Part shown: positions 46,014 to 63,500 of the stretch, in pieces
How positions within the stretch are numbered: position 1 is the stretch's first letter
Layout of the letters: each line of letters begins with the position of its first letter
From: Streptantibioticus silvisoli
GTDB taxonomy: Bacteria; Actinomycetota; Actinomycetes; Streptomycetales; Streptomycetaceae
Assembly (NCBI RefSeq): GCF_027947535.2
Contig: NZ_JAAGKO020000012.1
Span: forward strand, 1 to 64,000
Direction: 5' to 3'
DNA length: 64,000 bases
Position numbers and translations under genes: made by a program
The notes under the pieces: model-generated
The model's database searches: none
Seen by the model: only the letters and a program-made list of their open reading frames with translations
Told to the model about the DNA's origin: nothing

Positions 46014-46090
<77 letters not shown>

Positions 46091-46243: not shown

Positions 46244-47512
46244 TCAGCTGGTTGTGGTCCTGCGGGATGTGGTCGCCCTGTGGTCGCGGCTGCTCCTGCG
46301 ATCGTGGTCAGGGTTCGGCGGCGTGCTCGCGCTGAGGGCGTGGTCGATGGTGTCGACGGCTTGGTGGGCGGCTTGGGCGGTCAGGTGGCTGTAGAGGTTC
46401 GCGGTGGTGGACAGAGTCGAATGGCGCAGGGTCTTGGAGACGACGGTGAGGGGTACGCCGGCCGTGATGGAGATCGTTGCGGTCAGGTGCCGAAGATCGT
46501 GGACCGTGGCGCGGGAGACACCGGCCTCGGCGGCGAGGTCGTGGAAGTGGTTCAGGACGTATTGGGGGTGGGGCGGTCGGCCGTCGGATCGGTGGAACAC
46601 GTAGCCCTCGGTTGGTTGCTGAATTGAGGTGCTGGCTGTGTTGTGGGAACGGTTGCGGAGTGCGGTTTCGACGCGTGGTGATAGCGCCACCCAGTCCCTG
46701 CTGCTGTGGGTCTTGGGTGTGGTGAGGATCAGCTTGTTGTTGTCGATGGCGGAGAGGGTGTGGCGGACGTAGAGGACGTGCTGGTCGAGGTGGACGTCGT
46801 TCCAGTGCAGTGCGAGTGCTTCGCCTTTGCGCAGGCCGGTGCCGATGAGGACTTCGACGAGGTCGGCGAAGAGCGGGTCGGCTGTGTGGCTGTAGCGCAG
46901 GAAGCGGGCTGCTTCGGCAGGTGTCCAGATGTGGCGTTCGGCTGCTGCGGGCCGGGGGATGATGGTAGGCCGTGCAGGGTTGGCCGAGAGTCGGTGGTGG
47001 CGGACGGCGTCGCCGAGTGCGCTGGAGAGCGTGGCCACGAGGCGGTGGACGGTGACCTTGCCCCGTCCTTCGGCGAGTTGGGTTTGGACAAAGGCCGCGA
47101 TGTGGGGGTAGCCGAGATCGTCCAAGCGGATGTCGCCGAGGGCGGGGATGAGGTCGTTGGTGACGTAGTCGCGGTAGCGGGCCATGGTGGTGGGTTTCAG
47201 CACCAGGTCCTTCGCTTCAAGCCAGGCGGTGAGGTATTCGGCGACGGTCTGGTTGGGGTCGGCGGTGAAGCCGGCGGCCTGTCCCTCAAGTATCCGCCGT
47301 AGTGCTGCGTGGGCTGATTCTCGGGTGGGGTAGCCGCCTCGGCGGACGGTGTGCCGTCCTGGCGCGGGTGAAGGAAGATCGACGGCGAAGTTCCAAGTGC
47401 CGTGGGTTGGGTCCTCGGCGAGCAGCGGGCAACGGGCTCCGAGCTGGCGGTGGTGCTGGTCGCGGCACCCGCACCTGCGGTACACCCGGCCGTGTTCTTT
47501 GGCGGTTCGCAT
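46244..47512 (-). CDS. int: Tyrosine-type site-specific integrase
   Basis: 422 residues. The N-terminus has a Cys-rich patch (CGCRD, later CPLL) common in Streptomyces element integrases; the core-binding domain is at ~85-175; the catalytic residues are Arg228 in GTGLRKGEAL, His338 and Arg341 in HDLRH, His364 in LRHST and Tyr374 in ANLYSH. The set is complete, so the enzyme is probably active. Start ATG 47512 with GGGAGGCGATC upstream. Its 3' end faces the tRNA, as usual. Confidence 0.93.
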   Translation of the reverse strand: MRTAKEHGRVYRRCGCRDQHHRQLGARCPLLAEDPTHGTWNFAVDLPSPAPGRHTVRRGGYPTRESAHAALRRILEGQAAGFTADPNQTVAEYLTAWLEAKDLVLKPTTMARYRDYVTNDLIPALGDIRLDDLGYPHIAAFVQTQLAEGRGKVTVHRLVATLSSALGDAVRHHRLSANPARPTIIPRPAAAERHIWTPAEAARFLRYSHTADPLFADLVEVLIGTGLRKGEALALHWNDVHLDQHVLYVRHTLSAIDNNKLILTTPKTHSSRDWVALSPRVETALRNRSHNTASTSIQQPTEGYVFHRSDGRPPHPQYVLNHFHDLAAEAGVSRATVHDLRHLTATISITAGVPLTVVSKTLRHSTLSTTANLYSHLTAQAAHQAVDTIDHALSASTPPNPDHDRRSSRDHRATTSRRTTTS

Positions 47513-47768
47513 CGTGATCGCCTCCCGAAGTGAGCAGGACGCGATGCACTTCCAGTGTCCACCGCGGCGACCTGCAAGCGGCGACCACAGTGCGACCACA
47601 CTAGGCGGCGCAGGGCTCCTGATCTGCGGCGATCCCTTGTCATGGCGACAAGTGCACCGGGATGGATGCTGCGGACCGGAACTCCGCCCCGGAACCGGTA
47701 GCTTCCACCCCACCGCGGCAGGCCAGGCAGCGTACGTTCAGCTCGTCGACGGCTATGTGACGGGATAG

Positions 47769-48620: not shown

Positions 48621-49710
48621 CGGCGGCTGCCGGCGGCCTGCCCGCCGAGACCGTCACCACCGGGTACGACAGCCAGGACGAACCCACCTCCCTCACGGGG
48701 AACGGCACCAGCACCTGGGGCTACGTCACCGCGCTGGGCTACGACCCCCTGGGCGACCCCCTCCAGTACACCTTCGGCCCGTCCACCAGCGCCGTCTACC
48801 TCACCGAGCAGTACGACGAGCAGACGCAGGCGCTGACCGACGCCAAGACGCAGGACACCAGCCAGGCCGTCATCGACGACACCAGCTACACCTACGGCGG
48901 CACCGGCAGCGTGTCGCAGGGCACGGGCCTTCTGACGTCCACGACCGACAAGCAGAGTGCCGGCACGGTCACCGACACCCAGTGCTTCACCTACGACTAC
49001 GCGGAGCGGGTCTCCGCCGCCTGGACCGCCACCGACAGCTGCGCGGCCACCCCGGCCACGGGCAGCAGCGCCTCCGTCGGCGGTCCGAACCCCTACTGGC
49101 AGAGCTGGACCTACGACGCCGCCGGTGACCGGCTGTCGCAGACCGACCACGACCCCAGCGGGAACACTCCTGCGGACACCACCACCGACTACGCCTACCC
49201 GACCGCCGGTTCGGCGACCGATCAGCCCCACACGCTGAGCTCGACCACCGCCACCGGACCGGGCGCCACCGCCGACACCGCGAGCTACGGCTACGACGCG
49301 GCTGGCAACACCACCTCCATAAGTGGCGGCGCCGCCGGTGCCCAGACCCTCACCTGGGACGACCAGGGAGACCTGGCCACCGACACGAGCGTCAGCGGCA
49401 GCTCCACCTATCTCTACGACGCCGACGACAACCTCGCCCTGCGCACCGACCCCGGTAAGGCGACGCTCTTCCTCGGCGACGAGCAGCTGGTCGAGGACAC
49501 CGGGTCGGGAACGGTGACCGGAACGCGGTACTACACCATCGGCGGCGCAACCGTCGCCGACCGCTCCAGCACCGGGGACATCCAGTACCTCATCCCGGAC
49601 CGCCAGGGCACCGACACCCTCGCCGTCGACGCGGCCACCGGCCACAACGCCGCCCGGCGTCAGTACACCCCGTTCGGCCAGACCCGCGGCACCGCCCCGG
49701 CCACTTGGCC
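48621..49710 (+). pseudogene. Rhs/YD-repeat shaft, 5'-truncated and frameshifted
   Basis: Translation by frames gives YD-repeat protein: TVTTGYDSQDEPTSL, then GYDPLGDPLQYTFG, YDAAGDRLSQTDHD, YGYDAAGNTTSISGG and the Rhs core YLIPDRQGTDTLAVDA. The start of the gene is missing at about 48620. Near 48718-48720 one G is missing from a G run (TGG GGC TAC expected). Near 49709-49713 another G is missing, after which the frame continues as the next feature. Normal Rhs proteins exceed 1500 residues, so most of the shell is gone. Confidence 0.8.
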
Positions 49711-51126
49711 GGCGGTGACACCGGCTACGTGGGCGGCACCCCCGACGCCACCACCAATCTGGAGAACCTCGGCGCCCGCGAATACGACCCGGCCGACGGC
49801 CGGTTCATCTCCGCGGACCCCGTCTTCGAGTCCGCCGACCCCAACCAGCTGGGCGGCTACGACTACGCCGGCAACGACCCCGTCACCGGTAGCGACCCCA
49901 GCGGTCAGATCTACCTCACCAACGGCAGCGGCGACCCCGTCGCCGAGGCGTCCGCCTACGGCGCGGTCAGCCTGAACGGCAGTTCGGGCACATCGGCGGG
50001 GCAGTACATCACCAGGTTCTCTGCCGCGGTCGTCCACCGGCAGTACCTCTTCGACACCGCGGCCCCCGTCGCCAAGCGCCCGGACCGCTCATCGGTCGCG
50101 GAGTACCTCAAGGACTCCGAGAAGTTCGGCGAGGGCCTGCTGGAGGGGCTCATCGGCCCGTCCATCACCATGATGCCCGACGGCCACGGTGGACACACCC
50201 CGAGTCTCGACGACCCCGACATCGCGTCCGGCCCGTCCGGGGCCGGTGACCTGATCGGGGAGATCCTGGACTCGCTGGACGACCCCTTCGCCGGGGTCAG
50301 CGAGTGCTACAGCTTCGCGCCCACGACTCCCGTGCTCCTGTCCGACGGCAGGACGAAGCCCATCGGCAAGGTGAAGGCGGGTGACAGCGTCAAGACCGGT
50401 GACTACCTCACCGGCAAGCCCAAGGGGTCGCAACAGGTCACCGCCGTCCACATCAACGACGACACCGACCTGCTCGACCTGACGGTCCGCACGGGCGACG
50501 GGCACTTGTCGACCGTCCACACCACCGGCAACCACCCCGTCTGGGACGTCACCCGCCACCTGTGGGTGCCCGCCGGACAGCTCAAGCCCGGCGAACGCCT
50601 GGGCACGACGACCCACACTGTCGTCCGCGTCGCAGCGGTCCACCGCGTGGCCGGCACGGCACACCGCTGGAACCTCACCGTGGCGGACCTGCACACGTAT
50701 TACGTGATGGCGGGGGTCACGCCCGTCCTCGTTCACAACTGCAACACGACAGTATATCGATTTCAGACAGATCACCCAGACAGTCAGCGCTTGTCGGTCG
50801 ATGCCCATGGGGACATCTCGATCAGTGGTGACGGAATGCTTCACCTGAACATGAGCGGGAACATTGCGCACACGGAGCAATTCCGCGGTTCAGGTGGTCA
50901 AATAATCGCTTTCGATGTTCCGAGTTCGTATGTGGCTAAGGTTCGCTCAGCTGCAATCGACCAGCGCCGTCCATCTGGTATGAGCAGGCGACAGTGGAAC
51001 ATCTTCTCGTCTGGGCGTCCACAGATTGACGACCCAGCCAAGGGGCCAGATTTGTACGGGCTTCCGTCGGAGATGTTCCCCGGGCTCCTGCGTGCGATAA
51101 TTCCAGGATCGGGTAGAGTGCTGTGA
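49705..51126 (+). CDS. Rhs core end, Hint (intein-like) domain and C-terminal toxin domain
   Basis: 473 codons, open but without a natural start (TTG at 49705 is only a frame limit). Residues 20-66 hold the Rhs core end (LGAREYDPADGRFISADPVF, DPSGQIYL). Residues 201-346 are a pretoxin Hint domain beginning with Cys201 (CYSFAPTTPVLLSDG), with TVHTTGNHPVW as the block with catalytic Thr/His and ending VHNC. Residues 347-473 are the variable toxin tip, whose DNA is clearly less GC-rich and starts exactly after VHNC. The toxin begins VYRF and has FRGSGGQIIAFDVP; an ADP-ribosyltransferase-like fold is a guess. The next gene is a candidate immunity gene. Confidence 0.75.
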   Translation: MAGGDTGYVGGTPDATTNLENLGAREYDPADGRFISADPVFESADPNQLGGYDYAGNDPVTGSDPSGQIYLTNGSGDPVAEASAYGAVSLNGSSGTSAGQYITRFSAAVVHRQYLFDTAAPVAKRPDRSSVAEYLKDSEKFGEGLLEGLIGPSITMMPDGHGGHTPSLDDPDIASGPSGAGDLIGEILDSLDDPFAGVSECYSFAPTTPVLLSDGRTKPIGKVKAGDSVKTGDYLTGKPKGSQQVTAVHINDDTDLLDLTVRTGDGHLSTVHTTGNHPVWDVTRHLWVPAGQLKPGERLGTTTHTVVRVAAVHRVAGTAHRWNLTVADLHTYYVMAGVTPVLVHNCNTTVYRFQTDHPDSQRLSVDAHGDISISGDGMLHLNMSGNIAHTEQFRGSGGQIIAFDVPSSYVAKVRSAAIDQRRPSGMSRRQWNIFSSGRPQIDDPAKGPDLYGLPSEMFPGLLRAIIPGSGRVL

Positions 51127-51160
51127 TCGACTTCTGGAACGGATCGCAGGTGATGGAGAG

Positions 51161-51715
51161 ATGACGGGAAACGTTGAAAATGAGCCTGGTCGGCTATGGG
51201 TTCGTCCCATGGCGCCGCCCTCTGGTCCGCTGGCAGTGTTTTATGTGGAAGTCGGGCGGTGGGAAGAGGTGGAATTCTTTGCCCGTCGCGTTCGAGGGCT
51301 CGTCGCTGCCGGAGTAGAGATTTCCCGGCACGGAGACTTCGACTTGGATCAACTTCCAGAAGATGTCCTTCCGACATGGGTTGGAGGCGGTGATTCCTCT
51401 GAGGAGCAAAGAGACGCCCGCCTCCGGTATTCCCTGCACCGTGGGGAAGAGGAGTGGACGGCGCAGGATCTTCTGTTTTCCTTTGAGCCGAAGCAGAGGC
51501 GTTGGAAGTGGTGGGATGTGACTCTGCTCGGCGGGAATTTGCTCCAGGTATGGGTGGATTCCCTGGGGGAGCCAGTCTTCGCCTGTGACGAGTTGAGATG
51601 GATTCTCTATCTCAGTGGTGCTCATGCCGTCGTTGGGCCGTCGCTATCGTCGCCTGATCTTTGGGGTCAGGAGCGGTCGGTTGGCGTCGACGTAGGGTCC
51701 GCGAGCTCAGGTTGA
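51161..51715 (+). CDS. Candidate immunity protein for the Rhs toxin
   Basis: 184 residues, acidic and tryptophan-rich, no signal peptide, no family recognised. It begins 34 bp after the toxin stop with GGAGAG before ATG 51161 and shares the toxin module's low GC content and codon use. Position immediately downstream of a polymorphic toxin tip is the normal place for the cognate immunity gene. A strong terminator follows. Confidence 0.6.
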   Translation: MTGNVENEPGRLWVRPMAPPSGPLAVFYVEVGRWEEVEFFARRVRGLVAAGVEISRHGDFDLDQLPEDVLPTWVGGGDSSEEQRDARLRYSLHRGEEEWTAQDLLFSFEPKQRRWKWWDVTLLGGNLLQVWVDSLGEPVFACDELRWILYLSGAHAVVGPSLSSPDLWGQERSVGVDVGSASSG

Positions 51716-52467: not shown

Positions 52468-52511
52468 ACTGGGGGTCAAGGGGTCGCAGGTTCAAATCCT
52501 GTCGTCCCGAC
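52468..52511 (+). repeat. Attachment-site core, copy 2 (tRNA-Pro 3' half)
   Basis: 44 bp identical to 46045-46088 of tRNA-Pro, from ACTGGGGGTC to CGTCCCGAC. The 5' half of the tRNA is absent, so this is not a tRNA gene. It is the right end of element A and the left end of element B. Confidence 0.92.
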
Positions 52512-52529
52512 GGTGTTTTCGCAGGTCAG

Positions 52530-53738: not shown

Positions 53739-54461
53739 ATGCCCGTCAGAACGCGTCATCTGGCCGCCGCCGCGGGGGCCGCGGCGCTGCTCGCGGTCGC
53801 CGGCGCCGCGACGCCCGCGTCCGCCGCGGTCCAGTCGAACTCCACCTCCACCGGGTACGCCGCCGTCACCGGCACCTACACCTCCGTCTCCTCCTCCTGG
53901 ACCCAGCCGACCGTCACGTGCGGGAGTCAGACCTCCTACACCACGTACTGGGTCGGCCTCGACGGCTACAACGACTCCGCGATGGAGCAGACCGGCACGG
54001 AGGCCGACTGCATCAGCGGCCGGGCCGTCTACGGCGCCTGGTGGGAGGTGCTGCCCGCCTCGCAGAGCGCGTACTCCAGCGTCACGGTCAAGGGCGGCGA
54101 CCACCTGACCGCGACGGTGACCTACATCGGCAGCAGCAATTTCACGATGACGTTGTTCGACTCCACCCAGGACTGGACCAAGACCACCACCCACAAGGGC
54201 TCCTCCGGCTTCCAGAACACCTCCGCCGAGGTCATCACCGAAAGCACCGACGCCAGCGGCAGCATCGGCGCGACCGGAGGCGGCTCGGTCACCTTCACCG
54301 GCTCCACGGTCAACGGCGGCACGCTGGCCGCCGCCGATCCCGTACCGATCACCACCGACGACTCGACCGTCACGCCCATCACCGGCGGCGGGACGTTCAC
54401 CGCCAAGTGGGGAACCGGCGGCGGCGTCGGTCCCCTCCTGCCCGGCCGCGCCGAACACTGA
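53739..54461 (+). CDS. Secreted glutamic endopeptidase (eqolisin, peptidase family G1)
   Basis: 240-residue precursor with a clear signal peptide (RTRHLAAAAGAAALLAVAGA, cleavage after ASA near residue 30). The mature part matches bacterial eqolisins: SSSWTQPTVTC, WVGLDGYND, catalytic Gln84 in MEQTGTEADC and catalytic Glu164 in SAEVITES. These acid-active proteases are mainly fungal, with scattered actinobacterial members. Start ATG 53739 follows GAGGAAA. The last ~15 residues (GGGVGPLLPGRAEH) look like an extension past the usual end. Confidence 0.85.
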   Translation: MPVRTRHLAAAAGAAALLAVAGAATPASAAVQSNSTSTGYAAVTGTYTSVSSSWTQPTVTCGSQTSYTTYWVGLDGYNDSAMEQTGTEADCISGRAVYGAWWEVLPASQSAYSSVTVKGGDHLTATVTYIGSSNFTMTLFDSTQDWTKTTTHKGSSGFQNTSAEVITESTDASGSIGATGGGSVTFTGSTVNGGTLAAADPVPITTDDSTVTPITGGGTFTAKWGTGGGVGPLLPGRAEH

Positions 54462-56050: not shown

Positions 56051-56728
56051 GTGACTGTTCTGGCCATAGCGGACCGTGAAATGGACGACCTCGGCCTTCT
56101 TGCCGAGTGCTTCGAGACGCACGGTCTCGGCGAGACGGATGTGTGGCATCGCGAGCGGACCGACACATGGCCCGAGGCGCAGAACTACGACCTGGTCGTG
56201 TCGCTCGGGTCCGTATCCTCCGTGCTGGACAGCGAGACCGAGGCGGCGCGGAACAGGGAGCAGGACGTCTACCGGCGCGCGGTGGAGAACCGGGTGCCCG
56301 TGCTGGGCATCTGCTACGGCGCCCAAGTGCTCGGTCTGGCGCTCGGAGCGCCGGCGCGGCGGTCGCCGAAGCCCGAGATCGTCTGGCTCGAGGTGGACAG
56401 TACCCGCCCGGACGTCGTCCCGGCCGGCCCGTGGCTGGACTGGCACATGGACCTGCTGACCGTACCGGCGGGAGCCACTGTCCTGGCGAGGACGGATACC
56501 GCTCCACAGGCATACGTGTACGACCGCTGCCTGGCGGTGCAGTTCCATCCCGAGATGACGCCGCAGGAGCTGGCCCGGCGAGTGGACGCCTACCGCGGCA
56601 CCCTGGAGGAGGCCGGCGCCGACACCACGAAGCTCCTGACACAGGCGCATCGGCAGGCCGACGAGTCACGCCGTCTCACCCGCGCCCTGTTCACAGGCTT
56701 CTGGTCGCAGATCGCTCAGGCGGACTGA
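56051..56728 (+). CDS. Class I glutamine amidotransferase
   Basis: 225 residues, single GATase1 domain. The nucleophile elbow is GICYGAQ with Cys88; the His/Glu of the triad are in QFHPEMT (His166, Glu168). It resembles the stand-alone amidotransferases related to the GMP-synthase glutaminase domain. The start is GTG 56051 with GGAGG at proper spacing. It hydrolyses glutamine and delivers ammonia to, or removes a glutamyl group from, a partner substrate. With the MBL gene 28 bp downstream it forms the plus-strand arm of a six-gene set. Confidence 0.85.
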   Translation: MTVLAIADREMDDLGLLAECFETHGLGETDVWHRERTDTWPEAQNYDLVVSLGSVSSVLDSETEAARNREQDVYRRAVENRVPVLGICYGAQVLGLALGAPARRSPKPEIVWLEVDSTRPDVVPAGPWLDWHMDLLTVPAGATVLARTDTAPQAYVYDRCLAVQFHPEMTPQELARRVDAYRGTLEEAGADTTKLLTQAHRQADESRRLTRALFTGFWSQIAQAD

Positions 56729-56755
56729 CCGTCCGCCGCCCCGGAAGGTGGTTTC

Positions 56756-57550
56756 ATGCGTCTGGGAGAACTGCTGGTGGCCCCCCTCGTCGACGGGCAC
56801 GCGGTCATGGAACCGGAGGGGATCTTCCTCGACGCGCCGGCGGACGGGCTGCGCCAGGAGGGACTTCTGGGCTCGGGCGGCCTGCTGGAGTTCCCCTACG
56901 GCAGTTTCCTCGTGCGGGGACCGGCCGGGGAAGTCGTCCTGTTCGACCTCGGCGCCGGACCGGACCCCGGCTTCTTTCCCTTCGCCGCCCCCCGCCACGG
57001 CCTGCTGCCCTCCGCACTCGCCTCGCACGGCGTCGGGGAGGCCGACGTGACGGACGTGGTGCTGAGCCACCTGCACGCCGACCACATGGGCTGGGCCACG
57101 GTGGACGGGCAGGTCCGGTTCACCTCCGCCCGTCACCACGTGCACGCCGCCGATTGGCAGCACTTCGCGGAGAGCGACGCCTCACCGCACATCCGTGCGC
57201 GTCTCGCCCCGCTGCTCCCCCGTGTGCACCTGTGGTCGGCTCCGAGCGTGGAGCTCTTCCCCTGGCTCACCGTGACCGTGGCTCCCGGGCACACCCCCGG
57301 GTCTGCGGTGGCGGAACTGGAGTCGGGCACCGACCGGCTGGCGCTGGTCGGGGACCTCATGCACGATCCGGCCCTGATCCGTCACCCCGGCTGGGCCGGA
57401 GCCTCCGACTGGGACGCCGGTCTGGCCATTGCGGAGCGGCGGGCCTGGACGGCGCGCTGCCGGGCGCGGAACACGCCCATCGTTGGAGCCCACTTCCCCG
57501 CCATGCTCCCCGTCGCAGTCGACGGGGAGCATGGCGGGGACCGCGTCTGA
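56756..57550 (+). CDS. MBL-fold metallohydrolase (lactonase/glyoxalase-II-like)
   Basis: 264 residues. The binuclear zinc motif is VVLSHLHADHMGW (about 98-110), with GHTPGS, GDLMHD and a terminal GAHFP as later ligands, the AHL-lactonase-like arrangement. ATG 56756 follows GGAAGGTGG. The last codons are built from a 21-bp perfect hairpin, so the C-terminus is unusual. Substrate unknown; a cyclic ester or amide made by the neighbouring ligases would fit. Confidence 0.85.
   Translation: MRLGELLVAPLVDGHAVMEPEGIFLDAPADGLRQEGLLGSGGLLEFPYGSFLVRGPAGEVVLFDLGAGPDPGFFPFAAPRHGLLPSALASHGVGEADVTDVVLSHLHADHMGWATVDGQVRFTSARHHVHAADWQHFAESDASPHIRARLAPLLPRVHLWSAPSVELFPWLTVTVAPGHTPGSAVAELESGTDRLALVGDLMHDPALIRHPGWAGASDWDAGLAIAERRAWTARCRARNTPIVGAHFPAMLPVAVDGEHGGDRV
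57495..57540. terminator. 21-bp perfect inverted repeat inside the MBL gene end, bidirectional terminator candidate
   Basis: 57495-57515 and 57520-57540 are perfect reverse complements (TCCCCGCCATGCTCCCCGTC...) with only CAGT between. It ends 10 bp before the MBL stop codon, and the convergent ATP-grasp gene ends 28 bp further. It would end transcription from both sides. Confidence 0.75.
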
Positions 57551-57568
57551 CAGCGTCGCCCGCTCGGC

Positions 57569-58477
57569 TCACCTGCTCGCTGCGACCGTCCGGGCCACCG
57601 TCCGAGCGAGCAGGTCCGCAGCGGTGGGCGAGAAGTTGAGGAAGAGGAAGGGCTCGGTCAGCTCGACCTCGGCCAGCAGCGGTCTTCCAGCGGCGTCGGG
57701 TATCAGGTCGATCCGTGCATAGGTGAGGTCGGCGGCACCCCGGATCGCGGCCAGTGCGGCTTCGGCCACTTCGCGCTGGCCCTCCGACGGTTCGTGGGTG
57801 TCGACCCGCCCGGCCTCAGCCTCACCGGGGACGAGCAGGCCAGGCACCGGGACACCGGGAGCGAGGTAGGAATGGCTGCGCCGCACGGCATGGCTGTAGG
57901 CACCGCCGATGTAGACGAGGGAGGTCTCCCCCTCGCCGTCCACGGCCGCCAGGTACGGCTGGATGAGGACGTGAGCCCCCCGGCGTGCCAGCTGGGCCGC
58001 GTACGTCCAGGCGCGCTCGCGGTCGCCGGTGAGCAGACAGTGCCTGCCGCCCGCGCCGACCGACGGCTTCACCACGAGGTCCTGCCAGCCGTGCGGGACG
58101 GCGGCGGCGGCATCGGCGGCGGTCACGTCCGGACCGGCGGCCAGCCATCCGGTCGGCACCACGGGCACCCCCCGGCTCCCGAGGACGCGCAGATAACGTT
58201 TGTCGGTATTCCATTCCAGAACGGAAAGCGGATTAAGAAGGAGTGACTGCTGGTCGGCCTTGCGCATACGCTCCAGGAAATCCTCCCGGAAAGCCGGATA
58301 GTCCCACGCGCTGCGCACGAGTACGACGCGGAAACCCGCCCAGTCCGTTCCGTCGTCCGACCAGCGAACAGTACTCGCCGTCAGACCCTGACGGCCGAGG
58401 GCCGCCATGACGGCCGGCCGGTCGCCGTCCTTCCCCTCGTAGGTCACGTACGCGACGTCGTAGGTACGGGTATCCAT
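57569..58477 (-). CDS. ATP-grasp family ligase (DcsG/RimK-like)
   Basis: 302 residues. The ATP-grasp fold is shown by VVKPSVGAGGR (ATP-binding lysine and glycine-rich loop), VLIQPYLAAVDGEGETSLVYIGG and the metal-binding LLAEVELTEPFLFLNF near the C-terminus. The layout resembles cycloserine-pathway DcsG and similar stand-alone ligases, which join a carboxylate to an amine through an acyl phosphate. ATG 58477 starts MDTRTYDV. It belongs to the minus-strand arm with the PIN-like gene 31 bp upstream. Confidence 0.83.
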   Translation of the reverse strand: MDTRTYDVAYVTYEGKDGDRPAVMAALGRQGLTASTVRWSDDGTDWAGFRVVLVRSAWDYPAFREDFLERMRKADQQSLLLNPLSVLEWNTDKRYLRVLGSRGVPVVPTGWLAAGPDVTAADAAAAVPHGWQDLVVKPSVGAGGRHCLLTGDRERAWTYAAQLARRGAHVLIQPYLAAVDGEGETSLVYIGGAYSHAVRRSHSYLAPGVPVPGLLVPGEAEAGRVDTHEPSEGQREVAEAALAAIRGAADLTYARIDLIPDAAGRPLLAEVELTEPFLFLNFSPTAADLLARTVARTVAASR

Positions 58478-58508
58478 GCGCTTCCCTGCCTTCCGCGACG
58501 GCTGGGCG

Positions 58509-58982
58509 CTAGACGAAGTCCACCGGAATCGATTCGAGTCCGGGAATAGGGACGTAGCAGTATCGCGCATCCTCGACGGAGACGAGAGGAAGGTTCTCAC
58601 GTTTGGCCAGCAGCGCAGCGTGACAGGAACTCAGCACCTCGGAACCCACGACATGCTGCTCCGCGCACCGTCCGTACAGCGTGCCCGCCTGGAGCGCGAA
58701 CCCGATCGACGGCTGCACTATCTCGAACCCGTGGCGGTCGTGGAAGGCGTGCAGGCCCAGTTGCGGGTCCGCGACGTGCTCCCTCGAGCAATCGGCTTCC
58801 CAGCACATCCGCATGCCGCAGCAGTTCGAGAACGCCACCATGGGCGTGATGAGCCGGAGTGCTCCGGAAAGCGACGTGTCATTCAGTCGCGCACCCTCAG
58901 GCGTATGGGAATTGGCGACACTGTAAAGGGCGCCGGAGTCCAGTACTGCCGCGCCCTCGAAGCACATGGCTCTATTCATCAT
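58509..58982 (-). CDS. Cysteine-rich PIN-like domain protein
   Basis: 157 residues from the ATG pair at 58977-58982, with GGAG seven bases upstream; the frame continues further without support. It opens with AAVLDSGALYSVANSHTPEG, as PIN nucleases do (LDTGPLY), and closes with HAALLAKRENLPLVSVEDARYC, the PIN end pattern with a final Asp. The central part has clustered cysteines (NCCGMRMCWEADC) and is not typical. Only some of the PIN acidic residues are evident, so nuclease activity is uncertain. It could be a regulator or a repurposed fold in this pathway. Confidence 0.55.
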   Translation of the reverse strand: MMNRAMCFEGAAVLDSGALYSVANSHTPEGARLNDTSLSGALRLITPMVAFSNCCGMRMCWEADCSREHVADPQLGLHAFHDRHGFEIVQPSIGFALQAGTLYGRCAEQHVVGSEVLSSCHAALLAKRENLPLVSVEDARYCYVPIPGLESIPVDFV

Positions 58983-59166
58983 CCTTCTGCTCCAGTCGGC
59001 GTGGGGCATAGACCGCATCACGCCTTCCCCGCAAGCATCACCCTGTTCGGCCTCTCCGGCAACTCGTACGGCCTGGATCGTAGAATTGGATGTTTGCGCA
59101 TTCCTGGCGGTCGTGTTCCACTCGAAGCCGCAGGTTGATAAGGCAAATCCAATCTGGAGTCCTGGC
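58983..59166. promoter_or_regulatory. Divergent promoter region of the ligase gene set
   Basis: 184 bp between the minus-strand PIN-like/ATP-grasp genes and the plus-strand dehydrogenase gene. The part 59080-59160 is AT-richer than its surroundings (TAGAATTGGATGTTTGCGCA, GTTGATAAGGCAAATC) and likely holds promoters for both directions. No exact boxes can be assigned. Confidence 0.4.
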
Positions 59167-60279
59167 ATGCCTGTGCCGATACCTCCACACACCCCTCTCC
59201 CCACCACCGACGTCGGCGACGTACGTGTGCAGACCTACGAGACCACGGGCGGGGCCTTCGTCCTGGCGGTCGACAATTCCCACGGTTGGGCCGGCCCCGC
59301 CCACGGCGGGGTACGGGTGGAGCCGGCGCTCGACGTCGTCAGGGCGCGGGAAACCTCCCTGCGGCTGGCCATGCAGGCTGCCGCCAAACACGCAGTCCAC
59401 CGCACCGGCTTCCGGGGAGCAGCACTCGTCGTGCTCGGCGACCCGCCCCGCGAGCCTCTGTGGACAGCGGTGGCCGCCGAACTCAACCGGCAGACCGGTG
59501 ATCTTCTCGTCGCGGCGGACCTGCGCGTCGGTGAGCGCGACATGCAGTACCTGCACGGGCTCACTCCGTACCTGCTCAGCGCCCTGTCCCACTCGGGCGT
59601 CAACGCGTCGGCTGCGACTGCGGCGGGCGTGCTGGGCGCGGTGGACAGCGTCGCACGGCGGCTCGGCAGGACCACGAGCAGTCTGAGGGTCCTGGTGCAC
59701 GGGGTCGGCAAGGTGGGCCGGCCGGTCGCGCGGGCCCTGTCCGCGGCCGGCGCGACGGTGTTCACGCATGATCTGCGCCCGCACGCCGCCGAACTGCCAG
59801 GATGTGTCGCGGTCACCATGTGGATGCGTGAGGAGGTGGATGTCCTCATCCCCTGCTCCGTCGGCGACGTCATCGAACTGGGGGACGTGAGTCAGCTGCG
59901 CTGCCGTGCCATCGTGGGCTCCGCGGCCAGCCTGTTCGCCGAGGACCAGCGGGGCACCCTCGCCGCACTGCACGACCACGGCATCGTGTACGTCCCCGCC
60001 GCGGTCAGTGCCGGCGGGGCGGTGATCTGCAGCTCCGTCGAGCACTACGCTCCGAAGGTCTTCGACGCAGCCGCGCCCGACCAGCTGTACACCTTCGTCG
60101 GGGGCGAGATCCGCGATCACACCGACTCCTTGCTGGACGACGCCGTCTCACACGGGCTCACACCCGGCGGGATGGTCGCAGCCACGCGCCCCGGCGCAGT
60201 CGGGGCCGAAGGAGGGGACTGCGGTCGTCGTTTCCGCACGTTCCTCGACCGCGGGCAGACAGGGACCTCCAGAAGGTAG
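59167..60279 (+). CDS. Glu/Leu/Phe/Val dehydrogenase-like protein
   Basis: 370 residues, related to amino-acid dehydrogenases that interconvert amino acids and 2-oxo acids with NAD(P). The C-terminal Rossmann motif is VHGVGKVGRPVARALSAAGA, followed by CSVGDVI and VGSAASLF. The N-terminal catalytic half is divergent: the usual GGGK lysine loop is not found, while ADLRVGERDMQYL occupies the place of the DVG segment. So it may be an inactive or altered enzyme. Start ATG 59167 follows CTGGAG. It converges on the glutamine-synthetase-like gene. Confidence 0.75.
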   Translation: MPVPIPPHTPLPTTDVGDVRVQTYETTGGAFVLAVDNSHGWAGPAHGGVRVEPALDVVRARETSLRLAMQAAAKHAVHRTGFRGAALVVLGDPPREPLWTAVAAELNRQTGDLLVAADLRVGERDMQYLHGLTPYLLSALSHSGVNASAATAAGVLGAVDSVARRLGRTTSSLRVLVHGVGKVGRPVARALSAAGATVFTHDLRPHAAELPGCVAVTMWMREEVDVLIPCSVGDVIELGDVSQLRCRAIVGSAASLFAEDQRGTLAALHDHGIVYVPAAVSAGGAVICSSVEHYAPKVFDAAAPDQLYTFVGGEIRDHTDSLLDDAVSHGLTPGGMVAATRPGAVGAEGGDCGRRFRTFLDRGQTGTSRR

Positions 60280-60324
60280 GCCGGGGCATCCGGGCGCAGG
60301 AGCGCAGGACAGCGGCTCGCGTCC

Positions 60325-61839
60325 TCAGAAGAACTCGAAGTACTCGCGCATCTCCCAGTCCGCCGTCGCCTTCTCCACGTCTCCCGGGGACTCCTGCACG
60401 GCTTCCGCCCGGCGGGTGATCTCCGCGCGCTTCAACTTGACGAAGTAGTCGGTGAAGACGTCCCCGAACTCGGCCCTGTACAGGGCGGACCGCTCCAACC
60501 GCGCCACGGCCTCGGACAGATCGGCAGGCAGCGGGAGTCCGTCGGCCCCGTACGGGTCCGTGACCGCCGGCGGTGGCGGCCGCAGCTGCCTGGTCATGCC
60601 GTCCCGGCCCGCCGCGATGTCGGCCGCCATGTAGAGGTAGGGGTTCGCGCAGGGCTCGCCCAGACGGTTCTCCAGGTGGGATCCCGGATCACCGGCCCCG
60701 CCCACCACCCGGATCAGGGCCCCGCGGTTGTCCACGGACCAGCCGGTTCGCGCCGGCGCGAACGAGTAGGGGCGGTAGCGGCGGTAACCGTTCAGTGTCG
60801 GCGTGGCGAAGGCCGCCATGGCCCCGGCGTGTTCCAGTTGCCCGGCCAGGTAGTGCAGCGCGGTCCCGGACGGAATGCGGGTCTCGTCCGCGAACAGGTT
60901 GCGTCCTCGGCCGTCGACGAGTGAGGAGTGCAGGTGCCAGCCGGAGGGGAAAGCGTGCGGCAGGGTCGGCACACTCATGAACGAGGCGATCATTCCCCTG
61001 CGCGCACACACCTGCTTGACGGTCGAACGGAACAGGATCATGGCGTCGGCCGCGTCGAGACCTTCCATGGGGGCGAAGGTGAACTCGAACTGGCCAGGTC
61101 CCCACTCGTTCTCCATCGTGCGGGGACGGAGCCCCACCTCCCACAGCGCGTCCCGCAACGGCTCCACCACCTCATGAGCGCCGTCGAGACGGTTCTCGGA
61201 GAGGAACTGGTAACCGCACTCCACCGCCGACGCCCCGGGCACGGGGGGCGGATGCCCGAGCTCTGCGAAGGCGAGCTGCGAAGAGGCACGGCGGACGACC
61301 AGGAACTCCACCTCCAGCCCGGCGACATAGCGCATGCCGTCCTGGGCGAGCTGCGCCAACTGCTGGCGGAGCAGACCGCGCCCGCACAGGGGGTTCCGCC
61401 GGCCGGACCCGAGATAGGTGTCGCACAGCATCCACCCGGATCGATCCGTCCAGGGGAGGACCCGGAACGTCTCCGGATCGGGGACAGCCATCACGTCGGG
61501 GAACCCGGTCAGTTCCGGCAGATCGATCCCGCTGTCCTCCTCGAAACCGGCGGTGAACACGTTGTTCCCGGTATCCATCTGGTATATGGCGCTGGAGAAG
61601 TTCACGCCGTGGGAGAACGCGCTGATCGCTGCTTCGGCGGACAGGAACTTGGTGCGGGAGACCCCGTGCTGGTCGACCACGACGGCGCGGACAGTGCGCA
61701 GCCCGAGCTCTGTGATCTGCGCCGACACCTGCTGGACAGCCTCCTGGCGTTCCGCGCTGTCGAGGTCATGCCGACACACGAAGCCGCGCCGCCCCACCGC
61801 GGGCTCGCCGGGTTTCGATCCGGGAAGGCCGATCTCCAT
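60325..61839 (-). CDS. Glutamine synthetase-like gamma-glutamyl ligase
   Basis: 504 residues, longer than GlnA (about 470). The catalytic core is clear: GLEVEFLVV for the metal-binding glutamates, NEWGPGQFEFTF, the GSGWHLHSSL-like PSGWHLHSSLVDG, NGYRRYRP and ENRLGEPCANPYLYMAA. An N-terminal ~35-residue extension precedes the beta-grasp. Many divergent members of this family are gamma-glutamyl-polyamine or -amine ligases, not ammonia-assimilating enzymes. With an ATP-grasp ligase and an amidotransferase nearby, it probably activates a glutamate or similar carboxylate in a pathway. Confidence 0.88.
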   Translation of the reverse strand: MEIGLPGSKPGEPAVGRRGFVCRHDLDSAERQEAVQQVSAQITELGLRTVRAVVVDQHGVSRTKFLSAEAAISAFSHGVNFSSAIYQMDTGNNVFTAGFEEDSGIDLPELTGFPDVMAVPDPETFRVLPWTDRSGWMLCDTYLGSGRRNPLCGRGLLRQQLAQLAQDGMRYVAGLEVEFLVVRRASSQLAFAELGHPPPVPGASAVECGYQFLSENRLDGAHEVVEPLRDALWEVGLRPRTMENEWGPGQFEFTFAPMEGLDAADAMILFRSTVKQVCARRGMIASFMSVPTLPHAFPSGWHLHSSLVDGRGRNLFADETRIPSGTALHYLAGQLEHAGAMAAFATPTLNGYRRYRPYSFAPARTGWSVDNRGALIRVVGGAGDPGSHLENRLGEPCANPYLYMAADIAAGRDGMTRQLRPPPPAVTDPYGADGLPLPADLSEAVARLERSALYRAEFGDVFTDYFVKLKRAEITRRAEAVQESPGDVEKATADWEMREYFEFF

Positions 61840-62578: not shown

Positions 62579-63046
62579 ATGACCATCAGCCCACTACTGG
62601 TGCCCCCGGCGAACCCGTCGCCCGAAGTCTCCCGTACCTGGGTGCGGCGCATTCTCAAGGGTGGCCAGATCACGGAGACCTGCCCCGACTGGTGCACTGC
62701 AAAGCACTTGAACGACGACAACAGTGTCGGGCTCGACGATTTGAGTCACTGCGCAGATGGGCCCCGCATTGAGCTGCCGTGCTTCGACCGCTACGAAGAC
62801 GGCCGGCCGGTCCACGTCTCGACCTACGTGCTCAGGGCCGACATCTTCGTCAGCCCGTATAGCGAGGACTCGGCCCAGCGGGTGCCGCACATCCAGTTCG
62901 AGCCGTTCCAGGACGAGTTTCTGCCACCGCTCAACCCCAACGAGTTCGAGGACGTCATCCGGCAGATCGAGGCCCACACCATCCGTCTGCGCGAAGTACA
63001 TCAACAGCTTGTCTCTCTCCGCACCGAGGGGCAGGAGGGAGGCTAA
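62579..63046 (+). CDS. DUF6907-like hypothetical protein
   Basis: 155 residues, soluble and acidic. TCPDWCTAKH near residue 35 followed by DLSHCADGPRIELP is the pattern of the actinobacterial DUF6907 family (CPxWC ... H), and the C-terminal helix EFEDVIRQIEAHTIRLREVH fits its end. Function unknown; such genes are frequent on Streptomyces plasmids and integrative elements, which fits its place in element B. ATG 62579 follows GGAG. Confidence 0.65.
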   Translation: MTISPLLVPPANPSPEVSRTWVRRILKGGQITETCPDWCTAKHLNDDNSVGLDDLSHCADGPRIELPCFDRYEDGRPVHVSTYVLRADIFVSPYSEDSAQRVPHIQFEPFQDEFLPPLNPNEFEDVIRQIEAHTIRLREVHQQLVSLRTEGQEGG

Positions 63047-63407: not shown

Positions 63408-63450
63408 CTGGGGGTTAAGGGGTCGCAGGTTCAAATCCTGTCGTCCCGAC
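63408..63450 (+). repeat. Attachment-site core, copy 3 (tRNA-Pro 3' half)
   Basis: 43 bp matching tRNA-Pro from CTGGGGG to CCCGAC with a single change (TTAAGG for TCAAGG). About 150 bp beyond it (GGTGTTTTCGC...GTATTGTCCGTTTC...TCCGCAGGTCAGCG) are also similar to the sequence after copy 2. It marks the right end of element B. Confidence 0.9.
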
Positions 63451-63466
63451 GGTGTTTTCGCGGGTC

Positions 63467-63500
63467 AGGCCCGTCTCCATCTCGTGGGGGCGGGCTTTCG
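63467..63500 (+). terminator. Terminator-like hairpin carried with attachment copy 3
   Basis: GCCCGTCTCCA pairs with the GTGGGGGCGGGC stretch (with G-T pairs) and is followed by TTT. It is the counterpart of 52530-52561. Confidence 0.55.

What the first reader, a model, noticed from the sequence alone, without database searches (positions are those of the whole stretch)
56051..61839. Uncharacterised ligase cluster on an integrative element
Amidotransferase, MBL hydrolase, ATP-grasp ligase, PIN-like cysteine-rich protein, amino-acid-dehydrogenase-like protein and a glutamine-synthetase-like ligase lie together, all apparently intact, inside an element otherwise full of wrecks. Two ATP-dependent amide-forming enzymes plus an amidotransferase suggest a small amino-acid-derived product (gamma-glutamyl-protected or amide-containing). 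I know no described pathway with this exact set.
Basis: inference. Interest (0 to 1): 0.75.

Follow-up and report, generated by a model that had tools for sequence, protein, structure and literature searches.

The report
Mobile five-gene homoserine-linked biosynthetic cassette
A set of five enzyme genes carried on a small mobile DNA unit in a Streptomyces relative recurs as a unit in two other streptomycetes, there together with its own homoserine-making genes, and so probably builds an undescribed small molecule from homoserine using a removable glutamate tag.

Summary
In detail: six intact genes lie at 56051-61839 in a 10.9-kb unit between two copies of the tRNA-Pro 3' end. Five of them (amidotransferase-fold hydrolase, metallo-beta-lactamase-fold (MBL) hydrolase, ATP-grasp, PIN-fold protein, glutamine-synthetase-like ligase) recur together, 56-72% identical, in two other streptomycetes. 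Their flanks differ, all five show purifying selection, and the two trees built (ligase, ATP-grasp) agree. Both other copies also carry a dedicated aspartate kinase and homoserine dehydrogenase; the kinase has lost its lysine/threonine feedback site. An unrelated Streptomyces PKS cluster pairs the same kinase and dehydrogenase types with the same PIN-fold family. The sixth gene (Leu-dehydrogenase-like) is absent from both other copies and has lost its catalytic lysine, so it is probably not core. The ligase belongs to the gamma-glutamyl organic-amide synthetases (NpaA1/AtdA1); the amidotransferase resembles its hydrolytic partner AtdA2. The ATP-grasp resembles D-cycloserine synthetase and the MBL resembles acyl-homoserine lactonases. 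Best reading: a horizontally moving cassette for a homoserine-derived metabolite with transient gamma-glutamylation, possibly gamma-glutamyl-homoserine lactone. Substrates and product are inferred. The PIN-fold family matches no Pfam model and is itself of interest.

The parts
56051..56728 (+). class-I glutamine-amidotransferase-fold hydrolase (AtdA2-like, predicted gamma-glutamyl amide hydrolase); core gene
   Evidence: PF00117 E 4.9e-13; PDB 7d54 E 1.7e-28 with Cys (GICYG) and His-Pro-Glu (FHPE) kept; 59% identical in both sister cassettes; dN/dS 0.33
56756..57550 (+). metallo-beta-lactamase-fold hydrolase of the lactonase type; core gene
   Evidence: PF00753 E 5e-16; best NCBIfam AidB lactonase, below its cut-off; PDB 7y7u, 4zo2 acylhomoserine lactonase; HLHADH, GHTPG, GDLMH and GAHFP motifs intact and shared with both sisters
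57569..58477 (-). ATP-grasp ligase related to D-cycloserine synthetase DcsG; core gene
   Evidence: NF058666 E 2e-66, below cut-off; PDB 6jil E 7e-42; 62-64% identical in both sisters; own clade 100/100
58509..58979 (-). small PIN-fold protein with conserved Cys residues, no Pfam family; core gene
   Evidence: predicted model pLDDT 79 matches VapC PIN domains, Z 11.7; no Pfam or PDB sequence match; 57-59% identical in both sisters
59167..60279 (+). Leu/Phe-dehydrogenase-like protein; catalytic Lys80 replaced by Ala; probably accessory
   Evidence: no close relative in the sister cassettes
60325..61839 (-). glutamine-synthetase-like gamma-glutamyl organic-amide synthetase (GoaS type); core gene
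   Evidence: PF00120 E 1e-74; PDB 8wwu = NpaA1 E 8.5e-113; E-x-E-W and F86 kept; 68-72% identical in both sisters, clade 100/100
46014..46090 (+). tRNA-Pro (GGG), integration site
46244..47713 (-). integrase-like ORF of the neighbouring element
   Evidence: ORF; named from sequence motifs, no family search run
52469..52529 (.). attachment-site-like repeat: 44-nt tRNA-Pro 3' end, left end of the 10.9-kb unit
63408..63468 (.). attachment-site-like repeat: 43-nt tRNA-Pro 3' end, right end of the unit

Best explanation
A horizontally moving biosynthetic cassette of five core genes that makes a small molecule from homoserine. Proposed order, all steps inferred from family chemistry: homoserine comes from the aspartate pathway (dedicated aspartate kinase and homoserine dehydrogenase in the sister cassettes, housekeeping enzymes in the window strain). 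The GS-like enzyme uses ATP and glutamate to put a gamma-glutamyl group on the amine of homoserine or of a derivative. The DcsG-like ATP-grasp enzyme activates the carboxylate and closes a ring or makes an amide. The amidotransferase-fold hydrolase removes the glutamyl group. The MBL hydrolase opens a lactone or ester, as a maturation or self-protection step. The PIN-fold protein is more likely a small-molecule enzyme or accessory than an RNase toxin. Shown here: the gene set, its conservation, its mobility, intact catalytic motifs and the loss of feedback control in the linked kinase. Not shown: any substrate or product.
For: Five genes conserved as a unit in two other genomes with different flanks. 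GS and ATP-grasp trees give the same topology at 100/100. Purifying selection on all five. Dedicated aspartate kinase and homoserine dehydrogenase inside both sister cassettes, the kinase lacking the effector motif of the housekeeping enzyme (Ser301 change gives a feedback-insensitive kinase, PMC9715595). The kinase, dehydrogenase and PIN-like types recur together in the SAT1 PKS cluster with homoserine O-acetyltransferase and O-acetylhomoserine sulfhydrylase. The GS-like enzyme sits next to NpaA1/AtdA1 and keeps the amine-site residues. The ligase/hydrolase pair also occurs on aniline plasmids and on an S. tendae plasmid.
Against: The window copy has no dedicated kinase or dehydrogenase and no relic of them, so the homoserine link rests on the sister copies. 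GoaS enzymes studied so far act on amines in catabolism, not known for amino acids. No transporter or regulator is shared by all copies. The ligase and kinase genes of one sister (G369) show frame changes, from assembly error or decay. No conserved order between the window and the sisters.
Confidence: 0.5

Rival explanations
1. A detoxification or catabolic cassette: the GS-like ligase and the hydrolase control gamma-glutamylation of a foreign amine as in aniline degradation, and the MBL and ATP-grasp enzymes process a linked lactone or acid.
For: Ligase and hydrolase are homologous to the AtdA1/AtdA2 pair, adjacent on aniline and linuron plasmids and on an S. tendae plasmid; the genes are mobile.
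Against: No Rieske oxygenase or ring-cleavage gene in any of the three copies; a feedback-free aspartate kinase plus homoserine dehydrogenase makes no sense for detoxification; the tunnel residue F75 of NpaA1 is Met in the window ligase.
Confidence: 0.2
2. The linked aspartate kinase and homoserine dehydrogenase are resistant duplicates of the targets of the product, which would be an inhibitor of the aspartate pathway, and homoserine is not the precursor.
For: Duplicated target enzymes are a common self-resistance device (general knowledge); the kinase differs from the housekeeping enzyme at its effector site.
Against: The SAT1 cluster adds homoserine O-acetyltransferase and O-acetylhomoserine sulfhydrylase, which fits precursor supply; the window copy works without duplicates; the change is at the allosteric, not the catalytic, site.
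Confidence: 0.12
3. Remnant or neutral passenger genes carried by an integrative element, no longer a working pathway in this strain; the dehydrogenase-like gene is a decaying leftover.
For: The kinase and dehydrogenase genes are missing here, gene order is rearranged, and the dehydrogenase-like protein lost Lys80.
Against: All five core ORFs intact with catalytic motifs kept; dN/dS of 0.24-0.37 between the window and a sister.
Confidence: 0.15

Closest known systems
NpaA1 / AtdA1 / TdnQ gamma-glutamyl organic-amide synthetases with AtdA2 / NpaA2 hydrolase (PMC11335346)
   Same: GS-like ligase clusters next to this clade, E-x-E-W and F86 kept, paired with a GATase-fold hydrolase
   Different: No oxygenase; tunnel residues F75 to Met and V201 to Phe; set in a homoserine-linked biosynthetic cassette
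D-cycloserine synthetase DcsG (PDB 6jil)
   Same: Full-length ATP-grasp similarity; ring closure on a substrate isosteric with homoserine is conceivable
   Different: Below the NCBIfam D-cycloserine synthetase cut-off (224 vs 360 bits); no other D-cycloserine pathway genes
AidB/AidC-type N-acyl-homoserine lactonases
   Same: MBL fold, complete metal-ligand motifs, best library and PDB matches
   Different: 69.6 bits against a cut-off of 360; cluster context biosynthetic
Fusaric-acid type pathways (PKS, aspartate kinase, homoserine O-acetyltransferase, O-acetylhomoserine sulfhydrylase)
   Same: Dedicated aspartate-kinase supply; the SAT1 relative shares kinase, homoserine dehydrogenase and the PIN-like family
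   Different: The cassette has no PKS, acetyltransferase or sulfhydrylase; comparison with fungal FUB genes is from memory
RohQ cyclodehydratase (azomycin pathway, PDB 9c5w)
   Same: A PIN-like fold with a small-molecule activity; model matches at Z 8.3
   Different: No sequence relation found; VapC toxins match the fold better (Z 11.7)

Membership tests
gamma-glutamyl organic-amide synthetase (GoaS) | clusters with NpaA1/AtdA1 rather than with ammonia-using glutamine synthetases | tested here: inconclusive
   E 8.5e-113 to NpaA1, next best PDB 1e-46; tree places it next to the NpaA1 and S. tendae lines, but no GSI was included
gamma-glutamyl organic-amide synthetase (GoaS) | amine-site residues E232, E234, W235, F86 of NpaA1 | tested here: met
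   all four conserved
gamma-glutamyl organic-amide synthetase (GoaS) | glutamylates organic amines, not ammonium | not testable with these tools
   needs enzyme assay
AtdA2-type gamma-glutamyl amide hydrolase | class-I GATase fold with Cys-His-Glu, partner of a GoaS gene | tested here: met
   motifs kept; paired with GoaS in all three copies
D-cycloserine synthetase DcsG | NCBIfam NF058666 curated cut-off | tested here: not met
   223.9 bits against 360
AidB N-acyl-homoserine lactonase | NCBIfam NF047979 curated cut-off | tested here: not met
   69.6 bits against 360
AidB N-acyl-homoserine lactonase | complete HxHxDH-H-D-H metal site | tested here: met
Leu/Phe amino-acid dehydrogenase | catalytic Lys80 (GGGK) | tested here: not met
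   Ala in the window copy, Lys in several relatives
VapC PIN-domain toxin | PIN fold | tested here: met
   Z 11.7, 130 residues, rmsd 3.0 on a predicted model
VapC PIN-domain toxin | VapB antitoxin partner next door | tested here: not met
   neighbours are biosynthetic genes in the window, both sisters and SAT1
aniline dioxygenase operon | Rieske dioxygenase genes | tested here: not met
   none among the ORFs examined around the three copies
integrative element in tRNA-Pro | tRNA 3'-end direct repeats at both ends | tested here: met
   excision not tested

The most novel reading that the evidence does not exclude
The cassette is a LuxI-independent route to an N-acyl-homoserine lactone in streptomycetes: the GoaS ligase makes gamma-glutamyl-homoserine, the DcsG-like enzyme closes the lactone (homoserine is isosteric with O-aminoserine, the D-cycloserine precursor), and the hydrolase and the lactonase-like MBL undo the two bonds; the PIN-fold protein is a new kind of small-molecule enzyme tied to homoserine pathways.
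Probability: 0.15. Interest if true: 0.85.

Novelty: new variant of a known kind. Interest (0 to 1): 0.6.

Why it matters
If right, it adds a compact mobile pathway in which gamma-glutamylation, known mainly from amine breakdown, serves biosynthesis. It also defines a PIN-fold protein family without a Pfam entry that recurs in natural-product clusters with feedback-free homoserine supply, which suggests that PIN folds serve small-molecule chemistry more widely than is recognised. The five-gene core is small enough to express and test directly.

Tried and rejected
The dehydrogenase-like gene as the defining marker: searched in 297 family genomes and in genome contigs; its relatives lie in unrelated contexts, so it was dropped as core. 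Housekeeping-orthologue reading: own genome holds one copy of the ATP-grasp, and the sister GS and ATP-grasp form clades apart from the common streptomycete paralogues. PIN-like outside streptomycetes: no hit in 394 genomes of the class. Plasmid DNA matches of the element: only tRNA and IS fragments. Relics of kinase or dehydrogenase in the window: none. Literature searches for the gene set, cyclocanaline, and PIN domain with homoserine gave nothing relevant. RohQ kinship by sequence: not found.

Full report
Observation. The six ORFs are present as described. Family scans name a class-I GATase, an MBL hydrolase, a DcsG-like ATP-grasp, an ELFV dehydrogenase and a GS-like ligase; the small cysteine-rich protein matches no Pfam or PHROG family. 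Its predicted structure is a PIN fold (pLDDT 79; VapC proteins at Z 11.7).

Setting. A tRNA-Pro gene lies at 46014-46090, followed by an integrase-like ORF. The tRNA 3' end recurs at 52469-52529 and 63408-63468, with about 290 bp of similarity between these two places. The cluster thus sits in a 10.9-kb unit of its own, without an integrase, next to a unit that has one. Third-position GC of the cluster genes is 0.77-0.88.

Co-occurrence. In 297 genomes of the family, the GS-like protein has one close relative (69%, G257), the ATP-grasp one (63%, same contig) and the PIN-like protein one close relative at 56% (same contig). Fetching that region showed GATase (59%) and MBL (63%) there too. A second search of 392 genomes of that genus gave one more full set, in G369. 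The two sister sets share gene order and are 78-82% identical in DNA over 8.7 kb, but not beyond it. The window shares only the coding regions of the five genes. GS and ATP-grasp trees both give window plus (G257, G369) at 100/100; dN/dS is 0.21-0.37. The ligase and kinase genes of G369 each show a change of frame, from assembly error or decay.

Homoserine link. Between the ATP-grasp and GATase genes both sisters carry a homoserine dehydrogenase and an aspartate kinase. They are about 50% identical to the single housekeeping copies of the window strain. The kinases lack the residues of the lysine/threonine site that the housekeeping enzyme has; a Ser301 change at this site makes the S. tsukubaensis enzyme feedback-insensitive (PMC9715595). 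On a plasmid of Streptomyces sp. SAT1, a PIN-like gene of the same family follows an aspartate kinase (63%) and homoserine dehydrogenase (66%) in a PKS cluster with homoserine O-acetyltransferase and O-acetylhomoserine sulfhydrylase. Further PIN-like relatives lie beside NRPS genes. The window copy itself has no such kinase or dehydrogenase and no relic of them.

Enzyme roles. The best PDB match of the ligase is NpaA1, a gamma-glutamyl organic-amide synthetase. E232, E234, W235 and F86 of NpaA1 are kept; F75 is Met and V201 is Phe. The pair of ligase and GATase-fold hydrolase also occurs on aniline/linuron plasmids and on an S. tendae plasmid. AtdA2-type enzymes hydrolyse gamma-glutamylanilide (PMC11335346), so the GATase is read as a hydrolase. 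The ATP-grasp is 224 bits against the D-cycloserine synthetase model, below its cut-off of 360, with full-length similarity to DcsG. The MBL has a complete metal site and its best relatives are acyl-homoserine lactonases, again below the family cut-off.

Dehydrogenase-like gene. It has the Leu/PheDH fold but Ala in place of catalytic Lys80, several relatives keep the Lys, and it is absent from both sister sets. It is treated as accessory.

Mechanism. The main reading and its rivals are in their own sections. What is shown is a conserved, mobile, intact gene set with a homoserine supply module in its sisters. What is inferred is every substrate, the order of steps and the product.

Limits. The genome searches sampled the family and one genus, and the second search overlapped the first, so frequency is only roughly known (rare, about one in several hundred). 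Loci of G handles carry no species names.

Noticed in passing
window 48900-51715: YD/RHS-repeat remnant with a Hint-like domain and a toxin-like C-terminal tail (ORF 49705-51126), followed by a possible immunity ORF 51161-51715; judged by eye from the translation.
   Followed up: no
window 53739-54461: Bacterial peptidase A4 family protein (PF01828, E 2e-22) inside the same 10.9-kb unit as the cluster.
   Followed up: no
window 62579-63046: DUF6907 protein (PF21848, E 1e-17) at the right end of the unit.
   Followed up: no
L141 (NZ_CP016083.1 655000-704900): Streptomyces sp. SAT1 PKS cluster with aspartate kinase, homoserine dehydrogenase, homoserine O-acetyltransferase and O-acetylhomoserine sulfhydrylase, reminiscent of fusaric-acid gene sets.
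   Followed up: partly
L032 9694-15068 and L035 9788-11587: Relatives of the dehydrogenase-like protein: one in S. griseocarneus near a gamma-glutamyltranspeptidase, an AMP-ligase, a second GS-like gene and an aminotransferase; one paralogue in the window's own genome.
   Followed up: partly
L134 9242-19894: In G369 the cassette lies beside ketosynthase, ACP, KASIII-like and AMP-ligase-like ORFs, resembling an OleA-D or beta-lactone set by eye.
   Followed up: no
L036 9989-13183: S. tendae plasmid: GoaS-like ligase, nitrilase and GATase in a row, a second streptomycete use of the ligase/hydrolase pair.
   Followed up: no
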